A stretch of DNA of 64,000 nt from Elmis aenea (lineage: Eukaryota; Arthropoda; Insecta; Coleoptera; Elmidae). This document shows, one piece after another, positions 15,450-46,830 of the stretch (positions are counted from its first letter, which is position 1; every line of letters starts with the position of its first letter). Position numbers and translations under genes: made by a program. The notes beneath the pieces are model-generated. The model had not been told where the DNA came from. It made no database searches and worked only from the letters and a program-made list of their open reading frames with translations. The stretch spans positions 59,589,415 to 59,653,414 of the forward strand of contig OX393578.1 of NCBI GenBank assembly GCA_947652605.1. Direction: 5' to 3'.

Positions 15450-17360
15450 CCTAATTTTTTCTTTTAATATTTTGTTGGTAAGAAACCTCAAAAATTAACT
15501 CGAAAAAGCAAAATATATTTTTATATCGTTTTAAAACACATATTCGGGAATAATTTTTTAACTGCTTAAGATATTGACTTGAAATTTTCAGGACATGTTT
15601 ATCATGCTTATCTACAACAAAAAACTGATTTGGGAAACGATCCAATATTTTGTTTGGGAGAAACTTCAAAAATTAACTTAAAAAAGCTAAATTTCTTAAT
15701 TTTTATATCGTTCTAAAACACATATTCGCGAATAATTTTTGAACTGCTTAAGATATTGGCTTTGAAATTTTCAGGACATGTTTATCATGCTTATCTACAA
15801 CAAAAAACTGATTTGGAAAACGATCCAATATTTTGTTTGTAAGAAACTTCAAAAATTAACTCGAAAAAGCAAAATTTTTAAATTTTTATATCGTTTTAAA
15901 ACACATATTCGCGAATAATTTTTTAACTGCTTAAGTTATTGACTTGAAATTTTCAGGACATGTTTATCTTGCTTATCTTCAACTAAAAACTGATTTGGAA
16001 AACGATCCAATATTTTGTTTGTAAGAAAATTCAAAAATTAACTCAAAAAAGCAAAATTTCAGTTTTTATATCGTTTTAAAACACATATTCGCAAATAATT
16101 TTTGAACTGCCTAAGATATAGACTTGAAATTTTCAGGACATGTTTATCATGCTTATCTACAACGGAAAACTGATTTGGGAAACGATCCAATATTTTGTTT
16201 GGGAGAAACTTCAAAAACTAGCTTAAAAAAGCTAAATTTCTTAATTTTTATATCGTTTTAAAACACATATTCGCGGATCATTTCTGAACTGCTTAAGATA
16301 TTGATTTTGAAATTTTTAGGACATGTTTATCATGCTTATCTACAACAAAAAACTGATTTGGGAAACAATCCAATATTTTGTTTGGGAGAAACTTCAAAAA
16401 TTAACTTAAAAAAGCTAAATTTCTTAATTTTTATATCGTTTTAAAACACATATTCGCGAATAATTTTTTAACTGCTTAAGTTATTGACTTGAAATTTTCA
16501 GGACATGTTTATCTTGCTTATCTTCAACGAAAAACTGATTTGGAATACGATCCAATATTTTGTTGTAACAAAATTCAAAAATTAACTCAAAAAAGCTAAA
16601 ATTTCTTAATTTTTATATCGTTTTAAAATACATATTCGTGACAAATTTTTTAACTGCTGAAGATATTGACTTAAAATTTTTAGAACATGTTTATCAAGCT
16701 TATCTACAACAAAAAACTGATTTGGGAAACGATCCAATATTTTGTTTGTAAGAAACTTCAAAAATTAACTCGAAAAAGCAAATTTTTTAAATTTTTATAT
16801 CGTTTTAAAACACATATTCGCGAATAAATTTTTAACTGCTTAAGATATTGACTTGAAATTTTCAGGACATGTTTATCATGCTTATATTCAACAAAAAAAA
16901 TAATTTGGAAACTATCCAATATTTTGTTTGTAAGAAACTTCAAAAATGAACCCAAAAAAGCAAAATTTCTTATTTTTTTTTATATCGTTGAAACACATAT
17001 TCGCGAATAAATTTTTAATTGCTTGAGATATTGACTTGAAATTTTCAGGACATGTTTATCATGCTTATCTACAACGAAAAACTGATTTGGGAAACGATCC
17101 AATATTTTGTTTGTAAGAAACCTTAAAAATTAACTCAAAAAAGCAAAATTTCTTAATTTTTATATCGTTTTAAAACACATATTCGCGAATAAATTTTTAA
17201 CTGCTTACGATATTGACTTGTAATTTTTAGGACAGGTTTATCATGCTCATCTACAACAAAAAACTGATTTAAGAAACGATCCAATATTTTGTTTGTAAGA
17301 AACTTCAAAAATTAGGTAACTCAAAAAAGCAACATTTCTTAATTTTTATATCGTTTTGAA
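15450..17360. repeat. Satellite array, about ten 182-bp monomers
   Basis: The landmark GGACATGTTTATC (or a one-base variant) occurs at 15591, 15774, 15956, 16136, 16319, 16501, 16683, 16865, 17048 and 17230, giving spacings of 180-183 bases. Each unit also contains TATCGTTTTAAAACACATATTCGCG, CTGCTTAAGATATTGACTTG and GATCCAATATTTTGTTTG. The units are AT-rich and highly similar, with scattered substitutions and small indels. Short open frames in the array are chance products of the repeat. It marks the boundary between the housekeeping genes and the SPH array. Confidence 0.93.
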
Positions 17361-17830
17361 ACTAAATTGAAAAAACTATTTGAAACTTTACCATAATATT
17401 TAATTGTATATAATATATCTTAAACAAAGTATTTTCCATACCCTCACTCTTATAATATTCCAAGGTACACATCAAATACTCAGTAATCCACCAAAATATT
17501 TGAAGTTCAGCGAAAATTGCCTCTGCTTCAAAAATTACCATATTTTAGGCGCCTTGATTTTTCCGAGCGATTTGGCTTTTTTTATGAAACTTATTTAAAA
17601 TGTTCAATGTCATTACAGTCCATTAAACGTAAGACTGCCTCTGCCTCTAACCGCCTGGGGTCAGCGATTGATGTGTTAAATATTAATAGATAACTTGCTC
17701 TGCGTTTTGTATTTCCAACCGGTTTTTTTCGAGGTTCAGTGCTCCGAAGAGTTTTCCTATCAGGGGCGAACTAACTTTTACCCCTTACAGAGTACACCGT
17801 TGGAAAAGCCAAGTATAAAGTGAGGCATAC
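17361..17830. other. Spacer upstream of SPH-A
   Basis: No gene is seen. The block about 17640-17800 is slightly richer in GC and unlike its neighbours, but I cannot assign it. Confidence 0.35.
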
Positions 17831-25009: not shown

Positions 25010-26354
25010 CTTTATTTGTTCTGAATATCCCAAAAAAGGTGTAGAACTTGTCACAATAATAATTTACGTACATTACAAATAATATACATAGTTAATAAAA
25101 ACACAGAAAAATTATATTTAAATATAACATTATATAAAGTCAGCATCATTTAAATATTCGCTTATTCCATAGTAAGCTTTAGAAATCAGAACTTTTCTTA
25201 ATTTCTTCTTCAATTCGCGGGTGGGAAGATTTATTATACTCTCAGGTGATGTGTTAAATTTATTATATATAGCAATAATTGTGGAGGCAACATTTTTTTG
25301 AAGATAGGTATATTTGAAACAATCGGGTTTTAGGTTTTTTTTTATGTCGCGTATTGGCTGCATGATTTCTTATATTCTCTTCGAACAGATCTACATTATT
25401 TTTTACGAACAGGATGGCTTCGAGAATAAATAGACCATAAAAGGTTAACATTTCGTTGTCACGAAAAGTTTCTTTACAGTGATCTCGGTAGTTTAGACCA
25501 AATATATTTCTTATACATCGCTTTTGTATAATGAAGAGGCGTTCTGAGTCACTAGCGTTACCCCAAAAAATTACAGCATAGCGTAACCTAGATTCGACAT
25601 ATGCATGATATGCAGTTTTGGCCGCGTTTGCATTGACCAATTTTTTTAGGTTTTTTAGTGCAAAAGGGTACCGTGACAGGCTTTGTGACAGGCGTTCGAT
25701 GTGGTATGACCAGTCCAGTCTAGAGTCAATACATAAACCAAGAAAAGATATTTTATTAACAACATTTATACTTGTGGAATTATTTTGAAATTTTAAGTCG
25801 GAGTTTATTTTACTTTGTGAAAATTTTATAACTTGCGTTTTATTGACGTTTAAGGTTAGGTTATTTAACGTAAACCTATGTTGGAGTTGGCCTAAACAGT
25901 CAAAGAGTTTTTGTTCAGAGTTTTTGGAATCTGAGTCACTAATAATGGCAGATGTGTTATCGGCAAATTGTATAAGGGAAGTTTTGACAAAATCTGGAAG
26001 ATCATTTGTGTACAGTATGTATAGGAGGGTGCCTAAGATTGATCCTTGCGGGACTCCTTTTTTGATTTTCTTTTTGTTGGGTTTTAGAAATCTACCTGAC
26101 GAGTCTTTTCCGGCAACGTATTGGTTTCTTTCCGAAAGATAAGATGTTATAAGATTATGGGCGGTCCCTCGTATACCATAGTGTTCTAATTTCGTTAGCA
26201 GTATCTCGTGGTCAACACTATCAAAAGCTTTTGAGAGATCAACACACATGACCATGGTGTGTTTGTCTTTGTTGAGGGATTGAAGAACATTTCGGATTGC
26301 CATGTAAATTGCTATGATGATAAATATAGCAATCCCAATTTTACTATAATACAA
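24975..26354 (-). mobile_element. Non-LTR retrotransposon remnant with reverse transcriptase domain
   Basis: On the minus strand from 26354 the frame covers much of an RT domain: VDLSKAFDSVDHEILLTKL, GVPQGSILGTLLYI and FADNTSAI. The catalytic FADD box has mutated to FADN. A frameshift near 25300-25360 separates this from the C-terminal part (25363-25130). The 3' end is CAGAACAAATAAAGA followed by a trinucleotide tail, (ATA)n on the plus strand at about 24976-25010. It is 5'-truncated, with no endonuclease. It belongs to the same family as 22437-23045 (Jockey/CR1-like group, clade uncertain) and sits between genes A and B. Confidence 0.85.
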
Positions 26355-26624
26355 TATTAAAACCCATCAGCGTTTAGAAATAGCAAAGAACGCGTCTATT
26401 ATTACTTAAACTTACATTATTTTTAAAATTGTAATAAATCATAATCGAAAATGCTTTTTAATTAATTTAATCTTTTAAGAAGTAAATAAACCAGGTTTTA
26501 TCCAATATACTTTGACAGTAAAACCTCAAACCAGTTCAAAATCCAGAGAAAACCTAAAAAAGATCAGAAATGAAACATATAGAGAACAATTAAAGAAAAA
26601 TAAGGCATACACTAACGTTTACAG

Positions 26625-26858: not shown

Positions 26859-29835
26859 ATGACAAAACTGTATATAATTGTGCTAGTTTTTCTAGCATGT
26901 GTTGAAAGCATTTTTAGTCAAGGTAAGTGTTTAGTTTGTTAATATTAGAAGCGAAAACTGTTAAAAGGTTGTATTTATTTGCCATAAATCAATTTAAAAA
27001 AAAATAAGAAAATTGTTTATTAAAGTAAGTACCAAATTATTCTTTTTATTGCTTTTAATCGGTTAGCCAGTTAAATATAGTTTGTCTTTTGTGTAAAGCG
27101 GCGATTTTTTTTTGGTATTAATAATGAAAACATTTGCAAAAAATTTTAACGACAAAACAGCATTTTTAAATACATATATTAGCTTCGTTTGATTGTTAGA
27201 GAAAGTTTAGGACGAATTTAGTGAAACACTTTCCGGATTTAACGAACAATTACTGTCATTTTACCCTGACTTTTTTTAAGCTAGGCTTGAAACTTAATAA
27301 TTTGCCCTGGTGTTACTGTAAAATCAAAGAGTTCAAAAGATATAAGACAATATCTAACACTTCGTAAAACTTATATTGTTATAGATTCCTGCGCAACACC
27401 AAATGGAAGACCAGGGTCTTGCGTTTTGTTATCAGAATGTCCAGTATTATACACTGGTGTTGTGAATTTAGACAAAAAAGCGTTAGATTTATCAAAAGAA
27501 GCGAAATGCAAACAACAAAATAACGACTTTTACGTCTGTTGTGGTAAGTAACAAAAATGTGCTTTTAAAAGGATTAAAAATTACCAATGGTGAACGTTAT
27601 CAAAATTGCCGTTTCACATAACGTTATTTTCTCCTTCTGAACGTATCTATTCGTTCCCGGGTTTTGGCTATCCACGACGCGAATTTAATTTTTTTAGCAG
27701 CATTACGAAATAATTCCGTGGTTGTAGTGTTCTCAAATTATTCATCAACGAGATCCTTCTCCGTCCCGGACCGCTCTTACCATCTACCTTCCCCTGAAGT
27801 ATCAGTTGCAAGAGTTCGTACTTTTCTGGTTGTCTCATTATGTGACCCTAGTACTACAGCTTTTTCCTTTTAACAGTATTCACAACTTCTGCCTTTACAT
27901 TAAATCTCCTTAGGACCTCTTCGTTAATGACATGGTTCTTCCAATGGATTCTAAGTATCTGTCTGTAAGTCCATATCTCTAAAGCATTTAGTTTTTTCCT
28001 TGGAGCCTCAGTTAACGTCCAAGATTCTACTCCGCACAGGAGCGCCGGAAAAACATAGCACTAATACCAATCTAAGCTTAAGTTGGAAACTCAGCTTGTG
28101 GTTCTTTAAAACTGTATTTATTTTACGAAATGCTGCTTTGGCCTTTTCTATCCGGCATATTATTTCAGCCGAATGGTCCCATTGTGCATTCGGTAAACTT
28201 TCCAAGTACGTGAATGTTTCTACTTTTTCTATTTCTACATTGTGTAGGAGAAGCCTTCACGGGTTTAGTAGGATGTTTTTATTAATGACCACGCATTTAG
28301 TATTTTGACTTTAGTTTGAGGCCATGTCGTACGCTGGCTGCTGTTATGCTATTCAAGAGCTGTTGGAATCCTTCCATGGAGCTTGCAAATACGTTATAGG
28401 TTATATTCCAGGATTTATTATTTTTTAAATCTTCAGATAAGTGTGCATCGCAGTGCGTTCCACTGCAATCATGCCCTCATATTTTGAAGGGCGTGCTCTC
28501 GTTGGATCAGAACGCGATTGAAACAGCAGAAAAATCTGTTTGTAAAAAAGATATTGGTAGGACATATGTTTACTGTGATACTCCTGAAGAAACCAATACC
28601 AAAAGAATAAAAGTCGATGTCGTTAGACCGCCTTTAGTGAGTGCACTTTCGGATGAGCGGGTATGCGGTTATCAACATTTTGATTATCGCATAAGCGATC
28701 GAAATAAAATAAACAAAGATGACTTCCCTTGGTTGGTTATGCTCTTGTACCAAACTAGGAAAAGCAAAGCTGCCCCTCTGTGTCTTGGTACACTCGTTAG
28801 TCATAGGCATGTGATAACCGCTGCTAGATGTTTTGAATTTCCAGAGAAGGCCAATAATTATAGCCTGTAAGTCCATATGCATTATTTTTTCGGGCAGAAA
28901 TGACAAAAAAAAAACGGGTTGTTGGAATTTCAATTTTAGTATAGGAACCTTTATTTGTCGATTTATCATTTTTCAATTTCAGGATGTTTGTTCGACTCGG
29001 CGAATTTAATCTTAACTCAGATCCGGACTGTAAGTATTTCAAAGAATTAAACTCTACAGAATGTGAAAAATCCCTGTTAGAAGTTCCCATAGAGAAATAC
29101 GATACTCATCCAAACTACTTTTCTGTAAATAATGTAGAGCATGGTAATGATATTGCAGTGATAAAACTTGCAAAATATGTTAAGTTCACAGGTGAGGTAA
29201 AAGCTAAATGATTTATTGCTCATGTATGACTAATTAAATTGTGTTATAGAATACATTCGGGCTATTTGCCTTCCTAAAATTGGAGACACTTTACGGGCAG
29301 TGGGACAAAAGCTTTATACTTCAGGATGGGGATTTTCAACAAACGGTAAGTCAATTTTCTCAACTCGCCTAAAAGTAAGATTTTAAAATTTTGATATACG
29401 AGTAAAAAAATAAAAAAAACTCAAAACTTTTACGGGTTTGATCCTTCAAAAGTCGCTTCGCATATCAAATAACGAAAAAAATGTGTTACATTTCAAACAC
29501 TAATAAATTGTTAAAAATATATACCAATTTTTCCAGGATATCCAGCTTTATATGATGTTAAGAAAAAAAGTTTAGGTACAATAGTGAAAAACGAAGAATG
29601 CCAGTTCTCCGAATCATCGATTGCAAATAACCTGCATCTGTGTTTAAGAGAAGGAAAAAATGCGAGTTGTTATTTCGACTTCGGAGGTCCTTTAATGTCG
29701 GAAAAGTCAACGCAATACTTTTTAGAAGGAATTTTCAATTCTCCGCTAGGCAATAATTGCGAAGAAAACAGCTTGGGGGCATATACTTCGGTTGCCAAAC
29801 ACCTAGAATGGATTAAGAGAGTAATTTTGAACTGA
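26859..29835 (+). CDS. SPH-B: double-CLIP serine protease homologue, recent duplicate of SPH-A
   Basis: Six exons: 26859-26922, 27385-27543, 28437-28866, 28983-29191, 29250-29345 and 29537-29835; 1257 nt, 418 aa. The domain order is as in A: signal peptide 1-21 (MTKLYIIVLVFLACVESIFS), CLIP1, CLIP2 with the same short first loop, a linker, and a protease-like domain. His is replaced by Arg (VITAARCF), Ser by Phe (FDFGGPL), and Asp is kept (NDIAVIKL). The last exon is almost identical to that of A over its full length. Differences cluster in exon 3 and exon 4; for example DPDCEQF in A reads DPDCKYF here and FTYCGESV reads STECEKSL. AATAAA at 29914. The predicted role is as for A: a secreted non-catalytic cascade component (inference). 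Confidence 0.92.
27600..28320 (-). mobile_element. LINE remnant in SPH-B intron 2, shared with SPH-A
   Basis: The sequence is colinear with 20740-21600 but lacks roughly 250 internal bases near 27745 and has more frame breaks. Minus-strand landmarks such as NAQWDHSAEIICRIEKAKAAF are kept. Since the same insertion occupies the same intron in A and B, it predates the gene duplication. Confidence 0.78.
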
Positions 29836-30590
29836 TTGTAATAATTTTGTCATTGTCATTGGGTAATTAATTTTGTCGTTATTAATTTGTAGATGCATAC
29901 TGTTAATTTATTAAATAAAAGCCTTTTACAGTAAAGACTAATTAATAGCGTACTATTGTTAATTGTAGCTGTGTTAAACTATTAATTTTCGAACGCATTA
30001 ATTTGTGTGTTTCTGTTTCAAAAAACTCTTAAATTAATTAAAAAAATTGCTTAATTTGTGACAATAAATAATTAGCAGTAACTGCCATAATATTTTACTG
30101 TGGTTTTCTAAGCAGAAATCTATTGTTGTTGCATGGACGAAAAATAATATCCGTAGAGACTGGTAGAAAAATGTAATTATACCACTATATAAAAAAGGAA
30201 GCAAAAGTAAATGCGAAAACTATAGAGCATCAACATTATATAAAATGTAAAGAAAAATATAAGAGAGAAAACTAAGAAATGAAGTGGAAAAGAAAATGGA
30301 AGCAGAACAGGCAACCTTCATGAAAGAAAATTAAACACAAGGCTCATTTTAATGTTACGAAAAGCAAGGAATCAAACGACGCCGTTTGTTTTTTGATCTC
30401 GTCAGGTTTTTTTTCCAGGCGATTGTCAACTTTTTCGTTTCAAAAAAGAGTTGCAATATTAACTGAAACTTAAGTGGTTGACAAATAAAATTTTAGTTTT
30501 GATGCGTCCTTGGCACGAATGTAACTTAAAGAGCTACGCATCTAACCAAATGTTCAGATAAATTTCATTGCCATGGGAAGTAAATATGAC
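29836..30590. other. SPH-B 3' flank and spacer
   Basis: Contains the gene B poly(A) signal and the tail of the A/B duplicated unit. 30120-30340 has decayed LINE-like character (ACCACTATATAAAAAAGGAAGCAAAAG, as in reverse transcriptase upstream regions), too broken to assign. Confidence 0.35.
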
Positions 30591-30672
30591 GCATACCATA
30601 CATAAAAATCCCACCAGAATATTTTGCTACTAGTTGACTAATTATTTACGTACAGGTTGTGCGGTGATCATT

Positions 30673-30684
30673 TGATAGCCTTGT
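30673..30684 (+). promoter_or_regulatory. Conserved upstream motif TGATAGCCTTGT (gene C)
   Basis: TGATAGCCTTGT lies 246 bases before the gene C start codon. The same word occurs 256 bases before D (35917) and 259 bases before E (39382). In C and D it is within a longer conserved block, but E is more diverged, so retention there suggests function. The core resembles a GATA site. Confidence 0.35.
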
Positions 30685-30918
30685 CACATCTAGTTTCATC
30701 ACACGTATTTGTGTTCAATAAATAAATATCAAGTAACAATGCTGCGTTTCAAAAACGTTTTTAATTAAGTCAAAATTCATGTGATACAAAAATAACAGCG
30801 TTTAAATCACCTTAGAAAAGTAAATAGCTCCTTTTTATGAAGAAGCCACAAATTTCACGCACCGGTTTATAGTTAGATTATTATTACGTATGTTATTTAT
30901 GATGTCAAAGTGCTAAAA

Positions 30919-31928
30919 ATGTTGTTGAAAGTTTTTTACGTTGTTGCTTTATTTAAAGTTTGTGTGATATTTACTGTTAAGACTGGTAAGTTTGTTTTCT
31001 TTATTTTTGCAGTGTATAGGTTTGATACAATGAAAATTGTAATTTCTATGAGGCTACAACCAATAAAAGTTGTCATTTAAAAGTACTTAAGCAATTTTGT
31101 CTATTTTCCAGTAACCACCCAATTTTGAAAAGTTGTTAGTATATTAATTACAATCAATGTATATTGATGGAAAAATTACCACTTTACAATTTTTTTCTAC
31201 TTGTCAGAAAAATGTTTGTGTTAAAGCAGTTTTACAGTATTTTGAAATGTAATATAACAAAGTGTCTTAAATGTCAAGGCAAATAAGTAGTGCCACTTTT
31301 GAAATAATAAGTTTTTGTAATTGCTCAATCGATTCTTAGCATTTACTTGTACAAAATGGTTAGAAAAAACTACATAGGTACATAAAAATTTATTAGTTTT
31401 GAACACGAGTTTTTTTTTGTTGATAATATTATATCTATAATTTCTATACAGATTCTTGTACGACATATTACGGAAAGGTAGCAGAATGCATTCCGCTAAG
31501 AAAATGTCCTTTGATTAACGAAGGCCTTTTCAAACTAGACGACTCAGCTGTGGATTTCGCAAGAAAATCCATATGCAAAATTGAAAACCGCGAAACTTTT
31601 GTGTGTTGTGGTAAGTAGGTACCTACTGTTAAGTTTTATAAATATTTTCGATGTAAAAAAACTATTTTATTCAGGCCAGTGTGGACCTAGTAGGAATGGA
31701 ACAGAAGTTGACTGCATCCCTTTAAGAGAATGCAAAAGTGTAGTTAATGATTTGTTATCCTTGGACCAGAAGTCGATTGAACGTGCCAAAAAGTCTGTGT
31801 GTAAGATAGAAAAAGATGAGCTTTATGTCTGCTGTGATGTTTACTCAAAAACGGACGCAGTGGACCGCTTTTTAGACAAAACAAGTAATAACTTCATTAA
31901 TATTGATAGTCACGACAAAATGTATTAG
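30919..31928 (+). CDS. SPH-C short product: secreted double-CLIP protein without protease domain
   Basis: Exons 30919-30985 (signal peptide MLLKVFYVVALFKVCVIFTV), 31452-31610 (CLIP1: CTTYYGKVAEC … FVCC) and 31675-31928 (CLIP2: CGPSRNGTEVDC … YVCC); 480 nt, 159 aa. After CLIP2 only about 30 linker residues remain before a TAG stop. The linker (YSKTDAVDRFLDKTSNN) resembles that of gene E (YQSKLEVVVPVSEKTSINN), where it leads into the protease-like domain. An AATAAA at 31976-31981 lies about 48 bases after the stop, so a short polyadenylated transcript is plausible. Both CLIPs have all six Cys, and CLIP2 has the E/F-type long first loop. CLIP-only proteins could compete for clip-domain partners (inference). 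The alternative is a truncated remnant whose signal exon now serves the long product. Confidence 0.65.
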
Positions 31929-34900
31929 TGTGAAAAAGCCTGCCTTATGTTGAAAGTGATTAGACTTACAAGAAAAATAAATACATGACTTTGGATCTAA
32001 AATAAAAGGCGCTAGAATCAATCTACTTTTGAAATGAAAAATGCCACAATTTTAAAAACTAGTGTTACAATAATTTAACAAAAAAAAAATAATTAATAGG
32101 GTGTACGCAAACTGGTGAGCCATTTTAATATTGTACAACGCTACCTCAAAAACCTTATCAGAAAGTGTACATCGCTGGCTGTTCATGTTTGACTGTAGAA
32201 TCAAAACTTTTAGCTACATTACTGCAATCAGTTATAAATAAATTGTAATCATCTTGTGACTTTATCCATATTTAATTTTTTTAAATGTTTAGTGCACACC
32301 TTATCTGCCACGCAAATTTAATAATACTTATCTGAATTAAAGAATACTGTACCACTCCACACGACAGGCTCGGGGAATGCGTGTCTTTAAATAATTGCCC
32401 ATTAATATACAATGGAGTTGTGAATTTGGAAAAAGAAGTTATCGATTTCGCGAGGAAGTCTAAATGCAAGGAAGAGAATGACAACGTATTTGTTTGCTGT
32501 GGTATGAAATCTCTTGAGCAGAGCATTCAAAATTTTTTAAACTTTACAAAATTTCAGGCAAATGCGATTCGGATTGCGTTCCTTTGCGATCATGTAAGAA
32601 TCTTTACCGACGCGTGCTTCAAATGAACAAAATGGCTATAGATACTGCCATAAAAGCCGTTTGTAAAAAGGAATCCGGTACCACTTATGTGTGTTGTGAT
32701 AAATCTGTTAACATCGAGAATAACATAATACTAGATACGGTTGTAGAAGACACTACTAAACCACCAAATTATTATGGTTTTGAAAAAAGGACTACTAAGT
32801 TAATGCCAACATCTACTGAGCTAATAGAAACAAATAGTTCTTTGGAAACATCTACTGGGCTAACAGGAGCACATGGTCCTTTGGATATATTTACTAAGCT
32901 AACAGAAGCATATGATCCTTTGGATTTATTTACTGAGCTAACAGAAGCATCTGGTCCTTCGGAAACATCTACTGAGCTAATAGGAGCATATGGTCCTTTG
33001 GAGATATCTACTGAACCAAAAGAAACCGTTACTAAACCAAGTTTAGAGAGCATTCTACCTAACAGTTACTATTGCGGTTATGAAGTGGTTTATTCCCACA
33101 AATCTTACCATAGAAATCAAGTGAACTCTAACGAGTTTCCATGGCTGGCGATGGTAGTGAACAAAAACAGTGAAAATGGAACTTTGATGTGCCTAGGCAC
33201 TCTTATAAGCAATACGCACGTTTTAACTGCAGCCAGTTGTTTGGAAAAATCAAAAATAGACAATGAAGATTCGTAAGTGTATTCATAGGTTGATTCAAAT
33301 TTGAATAAAACAATTGGGATATATATCATTACTAGAGAAGTTACTGAGGTTCTTGTTAATTAATAATATCTACACAGAATCAAGAAAATCTCACTTAAAA
33401 AAAATATGTATATAATCATTAGTTTTAAGTTTATCAAAATATTTATTCATACTCTTTTCGATTTTCTTTATTTAAACAATGTCCATCTCCATGTTTTTTT
33501 AAAGAATTGTATGTGTAGGCATTCTGTTTTAAAGATTTAAAGGGGGCACAAAATAGTCTTCACAAAACAATCAAATTATAAATTTCAGTGAAGAAAGCAT
33601 ATTAGATTTTTTTTTCAGTTTCTATGAAAATAGTTGCAAATATCTGTGCTTGGTTTTGATCTTAACAATCAGCGTAACTAAACAAAAACATATACTCAAT
33701 CAATAATATAATAACAAGAGAGATAGTAATAGTTGCTCTAGAATTTAAATCAGCTTTTGTGAACCTACTAAAATTAATTGTACATTATTATAAACGTTTA
33801 ATAAATTATAGATTTATTTCAGCATATTCGTTCGACTTGGAGAAGTTAATACAAAAACAGATCCGGACTGTGATTTTTTTGAAACGTACAAAGCTCCATT
33901 GTGCGATGCACGTATTTTCGATGTTGCCGTCAAAAAATATGCAATCCACCCGGATTATTCTAACATAAGTTCAACTGAACGTATTTACGACATAGCAGTA
34001 ATAACACTCAAAGATTCTGTGACATACACAGGTAAAAAAGAATCTGATATATCCAATGATCTTTGAAGATAAATGTTTATTTTTTAGAATTTATTAGACC
34101 ACTTTGTCTTCCTAGGATCGAAGATTTGACCCGGGAATCGGGTCAAAATATAAAACTGTATACAACAGGTTGGGGTTATTTAGATAATGGTAAGGTAATC
34201 ATTTTCAAGTTAAAAGAAAATTACGTAATTATAAGTATTCACTCTGTTAAGAATGTAGTTTTTTTATATTTTATTTTGGGAAAAGTATACAATTCGAATA
34301 ATCGTGTGATTTTCCGGGAAGTTTTTTTTTTAATAACAAATGTAATTGATAGTTTTTGACTTTCATTTTAATATTCCTCAGAAGTTTAAAAAAATGTTTA
34401 GGTTTTCATTAGTTTCTTGCAGAACGTAATAAAAAAATTTAAAACGCAAGTTATTTTAAAACAAATTTTTAAAGATACTTTTTGTAATTATCTTAATAAG
34501 CATTAAAAAAAAAAAACTTTTGATAAAAGATCTTTATGTACCCGGGCGGGGTTCTAAAATGTTAAGAAAACGTATTTGAAGAACAATCAGTTATTAAAAA
34601 TTATATTTGTATGATATCCGGTGTAAACTTTTAGAAACTTACAAATTTTAAAATTGGTTTATTAAATATCATGGATTTATTTCGTTATGTTTTGGATAAT
34701 TTTAATCAGTAACTCAAACAAGTTGTTTAACATAAATAATTTTTAGGTAAGCCGGCCCTTTACGACATCAAGAAAAAAAGTTTGGGTACGTTAGTACCAA
34801 AAGAACAATGTTCGCTTACTGCGTTAACTTCCGAAGTATCTCTTAATCGAGACTTAAACTTGTGTTTCATGGAGGGCAAAAACGCAAGTTGCTACTCAGA

Positions 34901-35060
34901 CGTGGGGGCTCCCTTAATGTCGTACCAATACTATCAATACTTTTTGGAAGGAATATTCAGCATGCCCACGGGACAAGACGCTTGTAAAGAAAACAGTTTG
35001 GGTGTTTACACCTCAGTAATTCAAAGTTTGGATTGGATTAAGAAAAGAATATTAGATTAA
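30919..35060 (+). CDS. SPH-C long product: double-CLIP serine protease homologue
   Basis: Proposed join: signal exon 30919-30985, then 32343-32501 (CLIP1, YCTTPHDRLGEC … FVCC), 32558-33272 (CLIP2 KCDSDC … YVCC, linker, start of protease-like domain), 33823-34031, 34088-34189 and 34747-35060; 1566 nt, 521 aa. No signal exon lies between 31928 and 32343, and the 30985 donor has the right phase for 32343, so I infer skipping of the first CLIP pair. The linker holds five diverged 13-aa repeats (STELIGAYGPLEI type). His is replaced by Ser (LTAASCLEK). Ser is replaced by Val and the next Gly-Gly by Gly-Ala (SDVGAPLMS). Asp is kept (YDIAVITL). The activation Arg-Ile is lost (HKSYHRNQVNSNEFPW). Poly(A) signal 35111. 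The exons are certain; the 5' connection is inferred. Confidence 0.78.
31976..31981 (+). terminator. Poly(A) signal of the SPH-C short product
   Basis: AATAAA 48 bases after the short-form stop codon and upstream of the second CLIP exon pair. Its use would end the transcript before the protease-like exons. Confidence 0.4.
32812..33029 (+). repeat. Coding 39-bp minisatellite in SPH-C linker
   Basis: Five diverged 13-residue units of the form S-T-E-L-x-x-A-x-G-P-x-E-x lie between CLIP2 and the protease-like domain. Expected to be a flexible, possibly O-glycosylated linker. Homologous to the purer array in gene D. Confidence 0.75.
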
Positions 35061-35916
35061 AAAAATTATGCAATTATATTTGATTTTTAATGTATGTAAG
35101 TAAATTATTAAATAAACGCGTGTGCCTTCCACCATACACCGAAAAACACAGAAGAATATTAAAATGATCCGAATATAATATGTAGTTGTATAGTTCATAG
35201 TCAATAAGGCAATGAATAAAAATTTCATGCAGGTTTAAAAAAATTAAATTCAAGTAAAACCCGCAATAAAAGAAATTTTCCTAAGATACATCAAGTTTTC
35301 AACAAAACAGCAACTCATGTACCTTGTCATATCTCAATTATTTGTCTTGTTTTAAAAACTGACCCATATTGACAGCAGAAATTTGTATTAATTAAATTTA
35401 AGTATCCTAAGATATATATTATGTAGTATTAATTAGGACATATTCAAGATTTCTCGAATAAGTTACCTCTTTGTATTAATCCTAGTTAAAATTATTTATA
35501 TACTATTATTCATATTGCAAATATTTATTACAAAAATTATCTTATTGAGTTCATATGATATAGCAATATTAAGGTAATATTTCCGAAATGTATGTTTCTC
35601 TCACCAATATTATTTTATTATTTACTTATAATAATCATGGAGCCAAACGTATTACATCTATCAATTGGAGTTGTTTTTAAGTAGTAAACCTCTCCTTTCG
35701 TTTCTGGGTAATTTATTTCAAATTTTTGATTTAAATTGTTATGTCCCGGAATCCCGATAAACCCGGGGAAGAAGTACGATTTCTTCCTGGAATCCCAAGA
35801 CAAGCAGAAATGTCAAACATGAGAAACCTTAACGCATACCATTCTTGAAAAATCCCACCAGAATATTTTGCAACTAGTTAACTAACTATTTATGCAAAAT
35901 TTGTGCAGTGATCATT
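35061..35916. other. SPH-C 3' flank and spacer
   Basis: AATAAA at 35111. 35061-35470 is homologous to 38841-39270 after gene D, part of the C/D duplicated unit. The rest is AT-rich with nothing recognised. Confidence 0.45.
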
Positions 35917-35927
35917 TGATAGCCTTG
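35917..35927 (+). promoter_or_regulatory. Conserved upstream motif TGATAGCCTTG (gene D)
   Basis: It lies 256 bases before the gene D signal-exon ATG, in the same position as in genes C and E. The block from about 35850 to 36240 is closely similar to 30590-30986 of gene C. Confidence 0.35.
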
Positions 35928-36172
35928 ACACAAAGTATGTAGTTTCATCAGACGTATTCGGTTTTTCAATAAAACAATATCAAGTAACAATGAAGTGATT
36001 CAAACACGTTTTTAATTAAGTCAATATTTATGTGATACAAAAATAACAGTGTTTAAATCACATCAGAAAAGTAGATAGCTAATCTTGCAAAGAAACCACA
36101 AATTTCATGTTCCGGTTTATAGTTTAGTAGATTATTATTTCGTGAGTTATTTATTATGTCAAAGTGCTAAAA

Positions 36173-38840
36173 ATGTTGTTGAAAGTTTTTTACGTTGTTG
36201 CTATATTTAAGGTTTGTGTGATATTTACCGTTAAGACTGGTAAGTTTGTTTTCTTTATTTTTGAAGTGTATGGGTATGACACAATTAAAATTATAATTTT
36301 TTAATATATAAAATGGAAATTGACTGAACATTAATCCAAATGTCTGTTCCAAAATGTTATTAGTTTTGGATGCAAAGGCAAAAATGTGTGAATATCGTGT
36401 GTTGTCATAAATCTGTGAAAATCGAGAGTAGCCTAATGTTAGATAACGTTTTAGAAGGCACTACTAAACCACCAAATTATTGCGGTTCTGAAAAAAAGAC
36501 TACTAAGTTAACAGGACCATTTAGTCCTTTGCCAACATCTACTGAGCTAACAAAAGCATATGGTCCTTCGGAGACATCTACTGAGCTAATAGGAGCATAT
36601 GGTCCTTCGGAAACATCTACTGAGCTAATAGGAGCATATGATCCTTCGGAAACATCTACTGAGCTAATAGGAGCAAATGGTCCTTTGGAAACATCTACTG
36701 AGCTAATAGGAGCATATGATCCTTCGGAAACATCTACTGAGCTAATAGGAGCATATGGTCCTTTGGAAATATCTACTGAGCCAAAAGAAGCAACTGTTAC
36801 TAAACCAAGCTTAGAGAGCATTCTACCTAACAGTTACAATTGCGGTTATGAATTGTATTATACCCACAAATCTTACCATAGGAATCAAGTGAACTCTAAC
36901 GAGTTTCCATGGTTGGCGATGGTAATGAACAAAAACAGTGAAAATAGAACTTTGATGTGCCTAGGAACTCTAATAGGCAATACGCACGTTTTAACTGCAG
37001 CCAGTTGTTTAGAAAAATCAAAACAAGACAATGAAGATTTGTAAGTGTATTCATTGGGTGATTCAAATTTGAATAAAACCATTGGGATAAATCGTATTAC
37101 TAGAAAAGTTTCTGAGGTTCTTGGTAGTTAATAATAACTACCTAGATATCAAAAAAATCTCACTTTAAAAAAAATTACTTAATCATTAAGTTCAAGTTTT
37201 TACCATATCTATCCATACTCTTTTCGATTTCCCCTTTTTCTTTTTTTGAATAGAATCCATGTCTATGTTTAAAAAAAAAATAATATGTGTAGGCATACTA
37301 TTTTAAAGATTTAAAGGGGTTATAAAATAGTCTTCACAGAACAATCAAATCATAAATTTCAGTTAGGAAAGCATTTTAAAGATTTGTTTTCAGTTTCTAT
37401 AAAAATAGTTGCAAATATTTGTACTAGGTTTTGATCTTAACAATTAGCATATTTAAACAAAAACTAATGCTCTATCAATAATATAATAATAAGAGAGATA
37501 GTAATAGTTGCTCTAGAATTTAAATCAGCTTTTGTAAACCTACTAAAATTAATTGTACATTATTATAAACCTTTAATAAATTATAGATTAATTTCAGCAT
37601 ATTCGTTCGACTTGGAGAAGTTAATACCAAAACAGATCCGGACTGTGATTTTTTTGAAACGTATAAAGCTCCATTATGCGAGGCACGTATTTTTGATGTT
37701 GCCGTCAAAAAATATGCAATCCACCCGGATTATTCTAACATAAGTTCAACTGAACGTATTTCCGACATAGCAGTAATAACACTCAAAGATTTTGTGGAAT
37801 ATACAGGTAAAATAGAATCTGATGTATTTAATAATCGTAGATGATAAATGTTTATTTTTTAGAATTTATTAGACCACTTTGTCTTCCTAGGATCGAAGAT
37901 AGGACTCGGGAATGGGGTCAAAATATAACACTGTATACAACAGGATGGGGTTATTTAGATAATGGTAAGGTAATCATTTTCAAGTTAAAGCCAAATTAGG
38001 TAAAAATAAGTATTCACTCTGTTAAGAATGTAGTTTTTTTATATTTTATTTTGGGAAAAGTATACAATTCGAATAATCGTGTGATTTTCCGGGAAGTTTT
38101 TTTTTTAATAACAAATGTCATTTAAAGTTTTTGACTTTCATTTTATTATTCCTCAGAAGTTTAAAAAAATGTTTAGGTTTTCATTAGTTTCTTGCAAAAC
38201 GTAATAAAAAAATTTAAAACGCAAGTTATTTTAAAACAAATTTTTAAAGATTCCTACTTTCTGTAATTATCTTAATAAGCATTAAAAAAAAAACAAACTT
38301 TTGATAAAAGATCTTTATGTATCCAGGCAAAGTTTTAAAATGTTAAGAAAAGGTTTTTGAAGGATAATCAGTTATTCAAAATTATATTTGTATGATATCC
38401 GGTGTAAATTTCTAAAACTTACAAATTTTAAAATTTGTTTATTAAATATCATGGATTTATTTCGTTATGTTTTGGATAATTTTAATCACTAACTCAAACA
38501 AGTTGTTTAACATAAATAATTTTTAGGTAAGCCGGCCCTTTACGACATCAAAAAAAAAAGTTTGGGTACGTTAGTGCCAAAAGAACAATGTTCGCTTACT
38601 GCGTTAACTTCCGAAGTATCTCTTAATCGAGACTTAAACTTGTGTTTCATGGAGGGCAAAAACGCAAGTTGCTACTCAGACGTGGGGGCTCCCTTAATGT
38701 CCTACCAATTGTATCAATACTTTTTGGAAGGAATATTCAGCATGCCCACGGGACAAGACGCTTGTAAAGAAAACAGTTTGGGTGTTTACACCTCAGTAAT
38801 TCAAAGTTTGGACTGGATTAAGGAAAGAATTTTAGATTAA
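36173..38840 (+). pseudogene. SPH-D: duplicate of SPH-C that has lost its CLIP exons (possibly still expressed)
   Basis: A signal exon like that of C survives at 36173-36239 with a good GTAAGT donor. The next homologous sequence begins only at the end of CLIP2 (about 36390, VCC), so CLIP1 and nearly all of CLIP2 are deleted. The following exons are intact: about 36370-37040, 37598-37806, 37863-37964 and 38527-38840; from the ATG at 36370 they encode 431 aa. The TTATTAG before 36364 would be a natural acceptor but gives the wrong frame from the signal exon. TTAG at 36442 would be in frame but is a weak acceptor. His is replaced by Ser (TAASCLEK), Ser by Val (SDVGAPL), and Asp is kept (SDIAVITL). 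The linker has six 13-aa repeats. AATAAA at 38891. Either a secreted CLIP-less homologue via a cryptic acceptor, or a dead gene. Confidence 0.75.
36535..36790 (+). repeat. Coding 39-bp minisatellite in SPH-D linker (six units)
   Basis: Six nearly identical 13-residue units (STELIGAYGPSET type) plus a partial one. They are more homogeneous than the five units in gene C, so they were expanded or homogenised after the C/D duplication. Confidence 0.85.
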
Positions 38841-39381
38841 AAAAATTATACAATAATATTTGAACTTGATGATATGTAAATAGATTATTAAATAAACTCG
38901 TGAACCTTCCACTATACACCAAAAAATACAGATGAATATTAAAATGATCCGAATATAATATGTAGTTATGTAGTTCACAAGCAATAAGGCAATGAATAAA
39001 AATTTTATAAGGGTTTAAAAAAAATAATAAAAGAAATTTTCCGATGATACATCAAGATTTTAACAAAACAGCAACTCATGTAGCTTTCCATACCTCTATT
39101 ATTCGTCTTGTTTTAAAAACCGACCAATATTGACAGTAGAAATTTGTACTAATTAAATTTAAGTAGGTATCCAAAAATATATACTACCTTGTATTAATTA
39201 ATACACCTTAAAGATTTCTCGAGTAAGTTATCTTTTTGTAATAATCCTTGTTAAAATTATTTATATACTATCTTTCTTCTAAAAAATAAATTACAATGAC
39301 AAAGAAGAAAGTAATAACATCTATTAACCCAGAATTTGTTTTGCAGTTTCGTGTTTACAAATTACGTAAATTTGATTGAAC
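38841..39381. other. SPH-D 3' flank and spacer
   Basis: AATAAA at 38891, then AT-rich sequence homologous to the gene C flank up to about 39270. No gene is seen. Confidence 0.45.
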
Positions 39382-42600: not shown

Positions 42601-45490
42601 CGTTGAATATGAGGGCTGATAATGGCAAGCAATATAGTCCTTTTTTTAAATGCAGAAGAATTAGACTAAATGCAAGGATTCCTGCAAGCAAATCGAATAA
42701 CAAAAGACTAATTGCTACCAGCTTTATAAAAATAAAAATTTATTTAATATTAAAAGTTTAAAAAACGTAACGTTTTTCCTTGAATAAGGCGAGCAGTGAA
42801 AATGTTAATTTCTGAGTAAATTTACGATTAAAAAAATTAAATAATTAAGTAGTTTTTACTCATACGCCAGCGGATATATTTTTTTTCATTTACGTAGTTT
42901 CTAAACAAAAACAATCATTTACCTGTAAAAAGTTTTGAATGTGCCAGGAAGCAGATATTAATTATAGTAAAACTTTTATGCTAATTATGTTAATATTCCA
43001 GCTGGGCGAGTTATTTATTATATTTGTGATATTACACATTCCAGCATTTGCTAAATTTTAAGAAAATATTCGAGCTATTATGATCCAAGAAATTTAATAA
43101 AGCCTGTCCGATATCAAGAAAAGCAATTTGTTTCAAACTAAATATATTTCCTCTACATTATTAACTGATTTGTTGCAAAGATTATTAAAATTTTGCTAAC
43201 AAAAAATGGTAGTGATTAATTTTTTCCTTCTTACTTTTTGCACAAGCATTAAGGATTATTAGCCCCTAAATACGATTTTTAATTTTTCGCGAAAAATGGG
43301 AAAAGTACAAAGGCTATAGTCTTTGCACTTTTTTCGACAAAAAAATCGATTTTCTTAAAACTACAGCAAATGGCTTCAAACTTCTTAAACACGTTAGTTA
43401 CGAGCAAGTTAAGGATTATTAGCCCCTAAATACGATTATTAATTTTTCGCGAAAAATGGGAAAAGTACAAAGGCTATAGTCTTTGCACTTTTTTCGACAA
43501 AAAAATCGATTTTCTTAAAACTACAGCAAATGGCTTCAAACTTCTTAAACACGTTAGTTACGAGCAAGTTAAGGATTATTAGCCCCTAAATACGATTTTT
43601 AATTTTTCGCGAAAAATGGGAAAAGTACAAAGGCTTATATATATAGTCTTTGCACTTTTTTCGACAAAAAAATCGATTTTCTTAAAACTACAGCAAATGG
43701 CTTCAAACTTCTTAAACACGTTAGTTACGAGCAAGTTAAGGATTATTAGCCCCTAAATACGATTTTTAATTTTTCGCGAAAAATGGGAAAAGTACAAAGG
43801 CTATAGTCTTTGCACTTTTTTCGACAAAAAAATCGATTTTCTTAAAACTACAGCAAATGGCTTCAAACTTCGTATACACATTAGTTATGAGCGAATTAAG
43901 GATTATTAGCCCCTAAATACGATTTTTAATTTTTCGCGAAAAATGGGAAAAGTACAAAGGCTATATATATTAGTTACGAGCAAGTTAAGACCTAATTCCT
44001 TTACAGTAATTTTATTTTGTGTCACTAAAATACCAACAAGTTGACAATTTTTCATTCAAATATTACTTCTGATTTTTTTTATTTCAGAAAATTTGTTCGT
44101 CTGGGGGATTTTAACCTTAAAACAAACCCGGATTGTGAATATATTAAAGAACTTAACTTCACGTACTGTGGAGAGGACGTTATAGACAATCCTGTAAAGA
44201 ACTATGTAACTCATCAAAATTATTCCTTCGATGAACATGGAACATTTAACGACATAGCTGTACTGCAGTTGAAGAAATATGTCGAATTTACAGGTAAAAA
44301 GTAAGTGCGTTACTGATTTTGGTCAATTTTTAACTAAAGTTATTTTGTAGAATACGTCAGAGCCATTTGCCTACCGAATAAGGACGATAATTTACGGAAA
44401 ATTGGGAAAATGTTGTACACATCTGGGTGGGGTTCTTTTGTAGACAGTAAGTATAATATTGAGTTATCTTAAATATAAACTGTTTATTATAAAGTGGTTT
44501 AAATATATTAGCGTATGCCAATTAAAGCCATCTTTTCTTCAAGTATTTATTTTAATGTGCTGTATGCTTATTAGGGCTTGATAACCCAGTCAAAAAATCA
44601 CAAAAACATTTTAAATTACAATCAGTTAATTAAACTCCAACTTCATGTTGCTTGGTGTTAAAAAACATCCAAGTTTTGTTTAAAATTTGAGACATACGAT
44701 GATAAACTAAATTGTTTCGCATTTATTCCACAAAAATGATCAAAATTATTCATGCAGTCCTATTTTAATGGGGCAATAAGGAAGAATGCTGTAGGGAACT
44801 TGTTATAAAATACGTTAGAATGTCGAAAGTGATCATGTATATTGATTTATGAGTATGATTTCAAAATGAGTGCAAGATAGGAGAAAAAAATGCTGCCTTT
44901 TGATGTAAAGTTTGTCTTTAGTGCATTTATAAATTGTTTAAAAAAAATAGAAACGGGAAAAGTGGAAAAGTCCAAATTCAAATAGTTATTAAATAAATTC
45001 TATACAACATGATACAAACATTAAAAACTATTAGGTACACTTTTTTACAATAATTTTACTAATTTAATCAACTTTTTTGATATCAATATGTTTTCCTATG
45101 TAACATTTACACCCTGTAAGTCATTCAAAATTTGTGACTTTTACAAATCTTTCTTTAAGCTAACAGTATGGTTTTAAAATTTTAGATAAGCCAGGCTGGT
45201 TTGATATCAAGAAAAAAACGATCGGAACCTTGGTACCCACTACTGAATGTGTATCTAACTACAACTCTTCAGTTCAAGAATCCTACTTGTGTTTACGTGA
45301 AGGAGCAAATGCCAGTTGTATATACGATTCAGGAGGACCTCTCATGTCGTCCAACAAGTTACAGTTTTATTTGGAAGGAATTTTCATAGGCTATCCAGGA
45401 AATAACTTCTGCAAAGAGGGAAATACTGGGATTTATACTAAAGTTGTTCAGTATGTAGAGTGGATCAAGAGCACTGTTGTGGAATTGTAA
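39641..45490 (+). CDS. SPH-E: double-CLIP serine protease homologue that keeps the Ser but not the His
   Basis: Six exons: 39641-39707, 41024-41182, 41241-41697, 44088-44293, 44351-44446 and 45186-45490; 1290 nt, 429 aa. Signal peptide 1-22 (MFLGIVIVGAVFNIFVIPTI). CLIP1 (CTTYFGQKAEC … FVCC), CLIP2 with long first loop (CGLSKNGEEMGC … HVCC), linker, then CGFQHSDYRI and the protease-like domain. The Ser site is canonical (YDSGGPLMS) and Asp is present (NDIAVLQL), but His is Ser (VVTAASCLEK), so hydrolysis should still fail. RI is followed by RNSN rather than VGG. Intron 2 is only 58 bases; intron 3 is 2.4 kb and holds a LINE remnant and a tandem array. An AATAAA overlaps the stop codon (45490-45495) and a second lies at about 45502. 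Its first CLIP pair is the closest relative of the CLIP-only product of gene C. Predicted secreted, non-catalytic. Confidence 0.92.
39708..41023. other. SPH-E intron 1
   Basis: AT-rich, no recognised element or exon; short open frames here look random. Confidence 0.45.
41715..42650 (-). mobile_element. LINE remnant in SPH-E intron 3
   Basis: Minus-strand frames, broken by frameshifts, encode the second half of a non-LTR reverse transcriptase: PLSALIFNAVLKK (GxSPLLFN-type), EDKTKLMVIGHQ, FVYLGHFSQ, LRPTAIYGCETWVLNKN, RRWKRKITRRI, and a C-terminal tail ending near 41720 (LGLNDLQNVF). The upstream RT core and endonuclease are missing. It is a different family from the remnants in genes A and B. 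Confidence 0.8.
42651..43250. other. SPH-E intron 3, unassigned part
   Basis: AT-rich sequence with no recognised feature between the LINE remnant and the 160-bp tandem array. Confidence 0.4.
43251..43990. repeat. 160-bp tandem array with internal palindromes in SPH-E intron 3
   Basis: AAGGATTATTAGCCCCTAAA starts at 43251, 43411, 43571, 43738 and 43898, so the period is 160 bases (one unit is 167 because of an extra TATATAT); about 4.6 units. Copies are nearly identical. Each contains the perfect palindrome ATTTTTCGCGAAAAAT and the stem AAAAGTACAAAG … CTTTGCACTTTT. Confidence 0.93.
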
Positions 45491-46419: not shown

Positions 46420-46830
46420 ACTAGTTTTTAGTTATCGAGGTTGGAGCACTTCAATGTTGGAATGCCTGGGGAGCCTCTCCTCGTGGCTTTTGGCAGCTTT
46501 TTTAATTTCTTGCTTGACAGATTCAACCTGGAGTTTCTGGTGTAAATCGCTGTTCCGAACATAAATGCTCCTTGGTATGTCCAAACAGCCTGAGCACCTG
46601 TTTGTATAGAAGTTTGTTTTGGATAGAAAGCTGGGAGATTCTTCATACCAGCCAATTCATATCTCTATACTTTATCTTCAACTGTTCCGTTTTTTTTTTG
46701 ACGTGTTTCTTCCATTTTAACTTGACGTCTACGTTTAGGCCAAGATTTTTAGCAGCCTTTTTGCAAGGGATTAAGGGATTATATCATTATGTAGATACAC
46801 TGGTAGGTAGTTTATTCTAAACGAGAAAGC
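46420..46830 (-). mobile_element. Jockey-type LINE C-terminal fragment
   Basis: Minus-strand frames encode the end of a Jockey-like ORF2. VRNSDLHQKLQVESVKQEI and KSHEERLPRHSN (46560-46435) match the Jockey C-terminal pattern LHxDLxIPxVxEEI…RLxxHPN. Upstream, in another frame, WTYQGAFMFGTA and basic WKKHVKKK-type residues are consistent with the same family. The copy is frameshifted and truncated. Confidence 0.65.

What the first reader, a model, noticed from the sequence alone, without database searches (positions are those of the whole stretch)
30919..35060. Gene C is a chimera: one signal exon, two CLIP pairs, two possible products
Seen: the signal exon, then an E-like CLIP pair ending in its own stop and AATAAA, then an A-like CLIP pair (short CLIP2 loop C-x3-C) that continues into an A-like protease domain (exon 4 is 209 nt as in A and B, against 206 in E and F). 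The second pair has no signal exon of its own, and the first signal donor is in phase with both. Inference: fusion of a truncated E-like gene with a 5'-truncated A-like gene. Alternative splicing or polyadenylation would make either a CLIP-only secreted protein or a full SPH from one promoter.
Basis: partly seen in the sequence, partly recalled or inferred. Interest (0 to 1): 0.75.

Follow-up and report, generated by a model that had tools for sequence, protein, structure and literature searches.

The report
Fused CLIP gene, two possible products
In an insect genome, probably a beetle's, parts of two neighbouring immune-type genes appear to have fused so that one start could feed either a short CLIP-only secreted protein or a full-length inactive protease relative; the fusion is well supported by sequence, while the two products are a prediction that needs RNA data.

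Summary
The anatomy is confirmed: one signal exon (30919-30985), an E-like CLIP pair with its own stop (31452-31610, 31675-31928; AATAAA 31976, 32001), then an A-like CLIP pair (32343-32501, 32558-33272) running into an inactive protease-like domain ending at 35060. Trees place the near pair with gene E (100/98) and the distal pair with A and B (100/97) and reject uniting C's two pairs (p-AU 1.8e-5). The signal peptide is E-like. Simplest history: loss of DNA between a 5' E-like and a 3' A-like tandem paralogue (inferred). New: gene D is a tandem copy of C that kept this signal exon and the A-like domain but has no complete CLIP, so that linkage predates the C/D duplication and is unlikely to be an assembly error. 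No own signal exon was found for the distal pair. The protease-like part is constrained since the duplication (w 0.32, p 0.0014); evidence for the CLIP-only part is weaker (2dlnL 3.99). Splice sites lean towards the short form, but only modestly. Dual output from one promoter remains untested: no RNA was available.

The parts
30919..30985 (+). Signal exon of gene C, phase-1 donor CTG|gtaagt; E-like signal peptide
   Evidence: C-E 8/22 identical, score reached by 1 of 2000 shuffles and 0 of 5000
31452..31610 (+). Near (E-like) CLIP1 exon, 159 nt, phase 1-1
   Evidence: (40/52 with E)
31675..31928 (+). Near (E-like) CLIP2 terminal exon, ends in TAG
   Evidence: (33/54 with E); no donor in it scores as high as the 29 modelled donors
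31976..32006 (+). Two AATAAA signals (31976, 32001) after the stop
31929..32342 (+). Presumed fusion joint; no own signal exon for the distal pair, no detectable homology to introns of A, B, E or to F's flank; TATAAA at 32233 (0.5 expected by chance)
32343..32501 (+). Distal (A-like) CLIP1 exon, 159 nt, phase 1-1, with an AAG acceptor
   Evidence: (29/52 with A)
32558..33272 (+). Distal (A-like) CLIP2, Thr/Ser/Glu-rich repeat linker, start of the protease-like domain
   Evidence: (27/47 with A)
33823..34031 (+). Exon 4 of the protease-like domain, 209 nt
34088..34189 (+). Exon 5 of the protease-like domain
34747..35060 (+). Last exon of the protease-like domain, stop TAA
36173..36239 (+). Signal exon of gene D, tandem copy of C's (21 of 22 residues the same)
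36364..38840 (+). Rest of gene D: end of CLIP2, repeat linker and A-like protease-like domain; lacks the equivalent of C 31046-32688

Best explanation
Gene C is a chimera of two neighbouring, same-strand CLIP-SPH paralogues (shown by trees for the CLIP pairs). The simplest origin is loss of the DNA between the linker of a 5' E-like gene and the first intron of a 3' A-like gene, leaving one promoter and one signal exon ahead of two CLIP pairs (inferred). The near pair now ends as a terminal exon with its own stop and polyadenylation signals (shown as sequence). If transcripts end there, the product is a secreted protein of 159 residues with two CLIP domains and no protease-like domain. If the near exons are skipped and transcription runs on, the same signal exon joins the A-like pair and gives a 521-residue SPH. 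The short form is the likelier default and the long form minor or regulated (inferred from the order of exons and from splice sites). By analogy with other clip-SPHs the long form would act as a non-catalytic partner in a hemolymph protease cascade, and the CLIP-only form could bind the same partners and compete (inferred, not tested).
For: CLIP-pair tree: near+E 100/98, distal with A+B 100/97; uniting C's pairs rejected, p-AU 1.8e-5. E-like signal peptide. Exon 4 of 209 nt as in A, B, D. D repeats the linkage of this signal exon with the A-like domain: 30589-31045 against 35832-36299 86%, 32689-35533 against 36397-39296 88%. No own signal exon for the distal pair. No trace of the rest of an E-like protease-like domain between 31839 and 32342. 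Constraint on the C-D protease-like domain: w 0.32, p 0.0014; without exon 6, w 0.38, p 0.016. Near-pair branch w 0.043, 2dlnL 3.99 against w=1. About 2 indels expected in 371 nt on the C lineage if neutral, none seen to break the frame.
Against: No RNA evidence for either product. By whole-domain identity E's protease-like domain (55%) is closer to A's than C's is (52%), and a C+D+E+F grouping is not rejected at 0.05 (p-AU 0.078). No noncoding homology of C's upstream or intron 1 with E, or of the joint with A or B (10 comparisons, none beyond shuffles), so the breakpoint and promoter origin are not shown. The near-pair branch includes time before the truncation, and intactness could be chance (P of no stop 0.18-0.41 at 0.10-0.05 substitutions per site). 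D cannot show whether the near pair was present before the duplication. Leave-one-out acceptor scores of 31452 (5.3) and 32343 (4.6) differ little, and 5 of 30 acceptors score below 4.6, so the preference for the short form is modest.
Confidence: 0.5

Rival explanations
1. Chimera, but two separate transcription units: the E-like stub makes a CLIP-only protein, and the A-like SPH uses a promoter and start of its own that the scan missed.
For: TATAAA at 32233 and an in-frame ATG at 32285 lie just upstream of the distal pair.
Against: The reading from ATG 32285 closes at a TGA at 32333, before the CLIP; no phase-1 donor bridges it; TATAAA is expected 0.5 times in 414 nt by chance. D keeps the upstream signal exon with the A-like domain.
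Confidence: 0.17
2. Only the short CLIP-only protein is made from C; the distal A-like part is a relict without a signal.
For: Near exons come first and have consensus sites; the 32343 acceptor is the only AAG of 30 and donor 32501 scores 5.6 against 12.8 for 31610.
Against: Distal reading frames are open, with 12 of 12 cysteines; the C-D protease-like domain is constrained since the duplication, although this could come from D alone.
Confidence: 0.17
3. Only the long SPH is made; the E-like pair is a skipped relict inside a long first intron, as in A and B.
For: The SPH form is the family's normal architecture; intact frames over this time could be chance.
Against: Near exons have good splice sites, intact frames and 12 of 12 cysteines, and fewer inferred changes than E in three outgroup counts, none significant.
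Confidence: 0.1
4. Insertion instead of deletion: an E-like CLIP pair was copied into intron 1 of an A-like gene that kept its own signal exon.
For: Exon-module copying would be easy, as all CLIP1 exons are 159 nt and phase 1-1; no noncoding homology decides the breakpoints.
Against: C's signal peptide resembles E's (1 of 2000 shuffles) and not A's (757 of 2000) or, beyond a weak signal, B's (90 of 2000).
Confidence: 0.04
5. Assembly artefact in a recent tandem array.
For: The window holds recent tandem copies (A/B 84-92%, C/D 86-88% in the longest matches).
Against: The signal exon to A-like domain linkage occurs twice, in C and in D, with different content between.
Confidence: 0.02

Closest known systems
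Insect clip-domain serine protease homologs that are cofactors of prophenoloxidase activation (cSPH35/cSPH242 of Drosophila; PPAF-II of Holotrichia)
   Same: N-terminal CLIP followed by a protease-like domain without the catalytic serine (abstract and passages of PMC10540698)
   Different: Those have Gly in place of Ser (abstract); C has Val, and Ser in place of His (alignment to 2olg). C has CLIP pairs and a second, self-terminating pair.
Two-CLIP prophenoloxidase-activating proteinases (Manduca PAP-2; Plutella PxCLIP11)
   Same: Two CLIP domains ahead of one S1 domain (a reference title seen; passage of PMC4676143)
   Different: Those are described as, or suggested to be, active activating enzymes; C's domain lacks two triad residues.
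Firefly CLIP-SP-CLIP-SP proteins (P0001, P0003, P0004, P0005)
   Same: Nearest named relatives of this cluster and also a joined arrangement
   Different: They alternate CLIP and protease-like domains in one chain; C stacks two CLIP pairs ahead of one domain, with a stop between.
Chimeric genes from tandem duplicates (Drosophila)
   Same: New gene structures from parts of neighbouring copies (passages of PMC4503668)
   Different: Here the CLIP modules of both parents are retained and the joint carries a stop and polyadenylation signals.

Membership tests
CLIP domain, group 2 | Six cysteines, last two adjacent, 5 residues between Cys2 and Cys3, 22-26 between Cys3 and Cys4 (passage of PMC4676143) | tested here: met
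   4 of 4 CLIPs of gene C, spacing x-5-22-9-0; Pfam CLIP 48 and 53.5 bits against cut-off 20
Serine protease homolog (S1, inactive) | Trypsin-like domain with one or more triad residues replaced | tested here: met
   Pfam Trypsin 93.7 bits; aligned to 2olg: His to Ser, Ser to Val, Asp kept
Clip-SPH cofactor of prophenoloxidase activation | Gly in place of the catalytic Ser | tested here: not met
   Val at that position; definition from abstract
Clip-SPH cofactor of prophenoloxidase activation | Promotes prophenoloxidase activation with an activating protease | not testable with these tools
   Needs protein and hemolymph assays
Two-CLIP prophenoloxidase-activating proteinase | Catalytic triad intact | tested here: not met
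Chimeric gene of tandem paralogues | 5' and 3' parts group with different paralogues | tested here: met
   CLIP-pair tree and p-AU 1.8e-5; protease-like domain with A+B 92/96, not starred
Gene with alternative terminal exon (intronic polyadenylation) | Both mRNA ends observed | not testable with these tools
   No RNA data; in-phase joins and AATAAA signals only

The most novel reading that the evidence does not exclude
One promoter and one signal exon serve two mutually exclusive CLIP pairs of different parentage, giving a CLIP-only secreted competitor and a full SPH of the same cascade, the ratio being set by use of the early polyadenylation site; three-CLIP and hybrid-pair forms are also in phase.
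Probability: 0.3. Interest if true: 0.6.

Novelty: new variant of a known kind. Interest (0 to 1): 0.42.

Why it matters
If both products exist, one locus would set the balance between a non-catalytic SPH and a CLIP-only binder, a natural test of what CLIP domains do without a protease-like domain. For the Cotesia venom SPH Vn50, neither the clip nor the protease-like domain alone inhibited melanization (abstract and passages of PMC4553444). It is also a clear case of gene fusion made easy by exon modules: the six modelled CLIP1 exons in the window are all 159 nt and phase 1-1.

Tried and rejected
The window's own genome could not be searched: the same genome search was answered 'busy' six times, so copies outside the window are unknown. 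A protein search with the CLIP-only product had 10 candidates and none at E 0.001 or better. The profile search with A, B, C, E and F gave 5 distant hits, none with more than one listed CLIP family entry. Noncoding homology that would place the breakpoint or promoter was sought in 10 comparisons, none beyond the shuffles; the shuffles kept base composition only, and an eleventh comparison, of D's intron piece with C, was reached by 8 of 200 shuffles. An own signal exon for the distal pair was sought and not found. A donor inside the near CLIP2 exon that would bypass its stop was sought: the best, 31800, scores 3.9, against 5.4 for the lowest of 29 modelled donors. Rfam (gathering threshold) and ARAGORN found nothing in the window. 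Papers: searches for two-CLIP SPHs in beetles, clip splice forms, CLIP-only proteins, fusions and duplications listed no title or abstract start that describes this arrangement; listings were capped, two searches found no paper at all, and most subscription journals are not held. Splice scores come from a small matrix built on this window's own models and rank sites only roughly. NG86 gave no dS for several saturated pairs, so codon models were fitted in scripts. Structure prediction was not run.

Full report
What the window is. It is AT-rich (GC 0.28-0.35 in 4-kb steps) and holds a same-strand cluster of genes for inactive serine protease homologs with CLIP pairs. The organism is therefore probably a beetle, but it is not identified. 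Models for A to F were built from splice consensus and homology; the signal exon of F was not modelled (two candidates).

Observation. The finding's coordinates hold. The six modelled CLIP1 exons (A, B, C near, C distal, E, F) are each 159 nt and phase 1-1. The near pair of C ends in TAG at 31928, with AATAAA at 31976 and 32001. The distal pair begins at 32343 and continues to 35060. A six-frame scan found 12 CLIPs on the + strand, those of the models, plus weak matches with E from 0.3 to 15.

Parentage. CLIP1: near pair with E 40/52 and with A 22/52; distal pair with A 29/52, with E 24/52, and with the near pair 26/52. CLIP2: near with E 33/54, distal with A 27/47. In the tree of concatenated pairs the three inner branches are starred: near+E 100/98, distal with A+B 100/97, A+B 100/99. 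Uniting C's two pairs costs 42 log units (p-AU 1.8e-5); distal+E (6.4e-6) and near+A+B (1.1e-12) are also rejected. In a tree of 17 protease-like domains (6 from the window) C+D fall with A+B at 92/96, not starred; C+D+E+F (p-AU 0.078) and A+B+E+F (0.12) are not rejected at 0.05, and E is 55% identical to A while C is 52%. The A-like nature of this domain thus rests on the tree, on exon 4 length and on its being continuous with the A-like CLIP pair. C's signal peptide matches E's in 8 of 22 positions, a score reached by 1 of 2000 shuffles and 0 of 5000; A-C was reached by 757 and B-C by 90 of 2000. Upstream DNA and intron 1 show no homology to E, A or B where compared.

Gene D. C and D share 30589-31045 with 35832-36299 (86%) and 32689-35533 with 36397-39296 (88%). 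D lacks the equivalent of C 31046-32688 and so has no complete CLIP. The signal exon can reach the protease-like frame in D by 19 AG acceptors in 36241-36899, all within or after the linker's start (36443 onward); whether any is used is unknown. The linkage of this signal exon to the A-like domain therefore predates the duplication. D cannot show whether the near pair was there then. C-D identity is 0.86-0.90 in the 5' flank, the start of intron 1, introns 3 and 4 and the 3' flank, but 0.951 in intron 5; gene conversion in the 3' part would explain this (sliding values).

Selection. C-D protease-like domain: w 0.32, p 0.0014; without exon 6, w 0.38, p 0.016. This shows constraint in C, in D or in both. 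CLIP-pair codon model: one w 0.118; near branch 0.043 (2dlnL 3.99 against w=1, about p 0.05 on one degree of freedom), distal branch 0.110 (5.10), E 0.051 (15.51). The near branch includes time before the truncation. Changes on the near pair against E: 5 to 11, 3 to 5 and 3 to 8 with outgroups F, A and the distal pair; none significant. Under neutrality about 2 indels would be expected in 371 nt of the C lineage since the C/D split (15 events and 180 substitutions in 1385 aligned noncoding nt), and the chance of no stop is 0.41 at 0.05 and 0.18 at 0.10 substitutions per site. Taken together this is suggestive of constraint on the near pair, not proof.

Splicing. Leave-one-out scores: acceptors 31452 5.3, 31675 7.0, 32343 4.6, 32558 11.4; donors 30985 13.6, 31610 12.8, 32501 5.6. 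The acceptor at 32343 is the only one of 30 that ends in AAG; 5 of 30 score lower. Donor 32501 outscores 2 of 29. By a matrix that left out 32343 alone, 7.1% of the window's AGs score as high as 32343, against 1.9% for 31452. The lean towards the short form is thus real but modest, and the position of the near exons adds to it. No own signal exon exists for the distal pair in 31929-32342 among the six ATG readings; the nearest, ATG 32285, closes at the TGA at 32333.

Conclusion. The chimera is real in the sequence (about 0.9). Loss of DNA between tandem paralogues is its simplest origin (inferred). That both a CLIP-only protein and an SPH are made is plausible and untested (about 0.5). As a kind of thing it is a new variant of chimeric clip-SPH genes. 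Action in melanization is analogy only, and the Gly that marks the known cofactor SPHs is absent. Of the papers, PMC11172050, PMC4553444, PMC10540698, PMC4503668 and PMC4676143 were seen as passages, some with abstract; the others only as search listings.

Noticed in passing
36173-38840: Gene D is a tandem copy of C with no complete CLIP; it may make a CLIP-less secreted SPH by using an acceptor in the linker, such as 36443 or 36455.
   Followed up: partly
34190-35060 and 37965-38840: C-D identity rises to 0.951 in intron 5 against 0.86-0.90 in the other noncoding parts compared, as gene conversion would give.
   Followed up: partly
28437-28866: CLIP2 of gene B has lost one of the paired cysteines (YVYC in place of YVCC; five cysteines).
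   Followed up: no
32808-33014 and 36500-36792: A 39-nt repeat in the linker has 5.3 copies in C and 7.5 in D.
   Followed up: no
49042-49129: Candidate signal exon for gene F with a gtaagt donor; a second candidate lies at 46454-46541.
   Followed up: no
15466-17362, 43249-43965, 56950-57685: Long tandem arrays with units of about 182, 160 and 172 nt.
   Followed up: no
25263-26366 (-) and 12055-13308 (-): A reverse transcriptase reading (Pfam RVT_1) between genes A and B, and an ArfGap gene.
   Followed up: no
P0001, P0003, P0004, P0005: Four firefly proteins each have two CLIP and two trypsin-like stretches, another joined arrangement among the nearest relatives.
   Followed up: no
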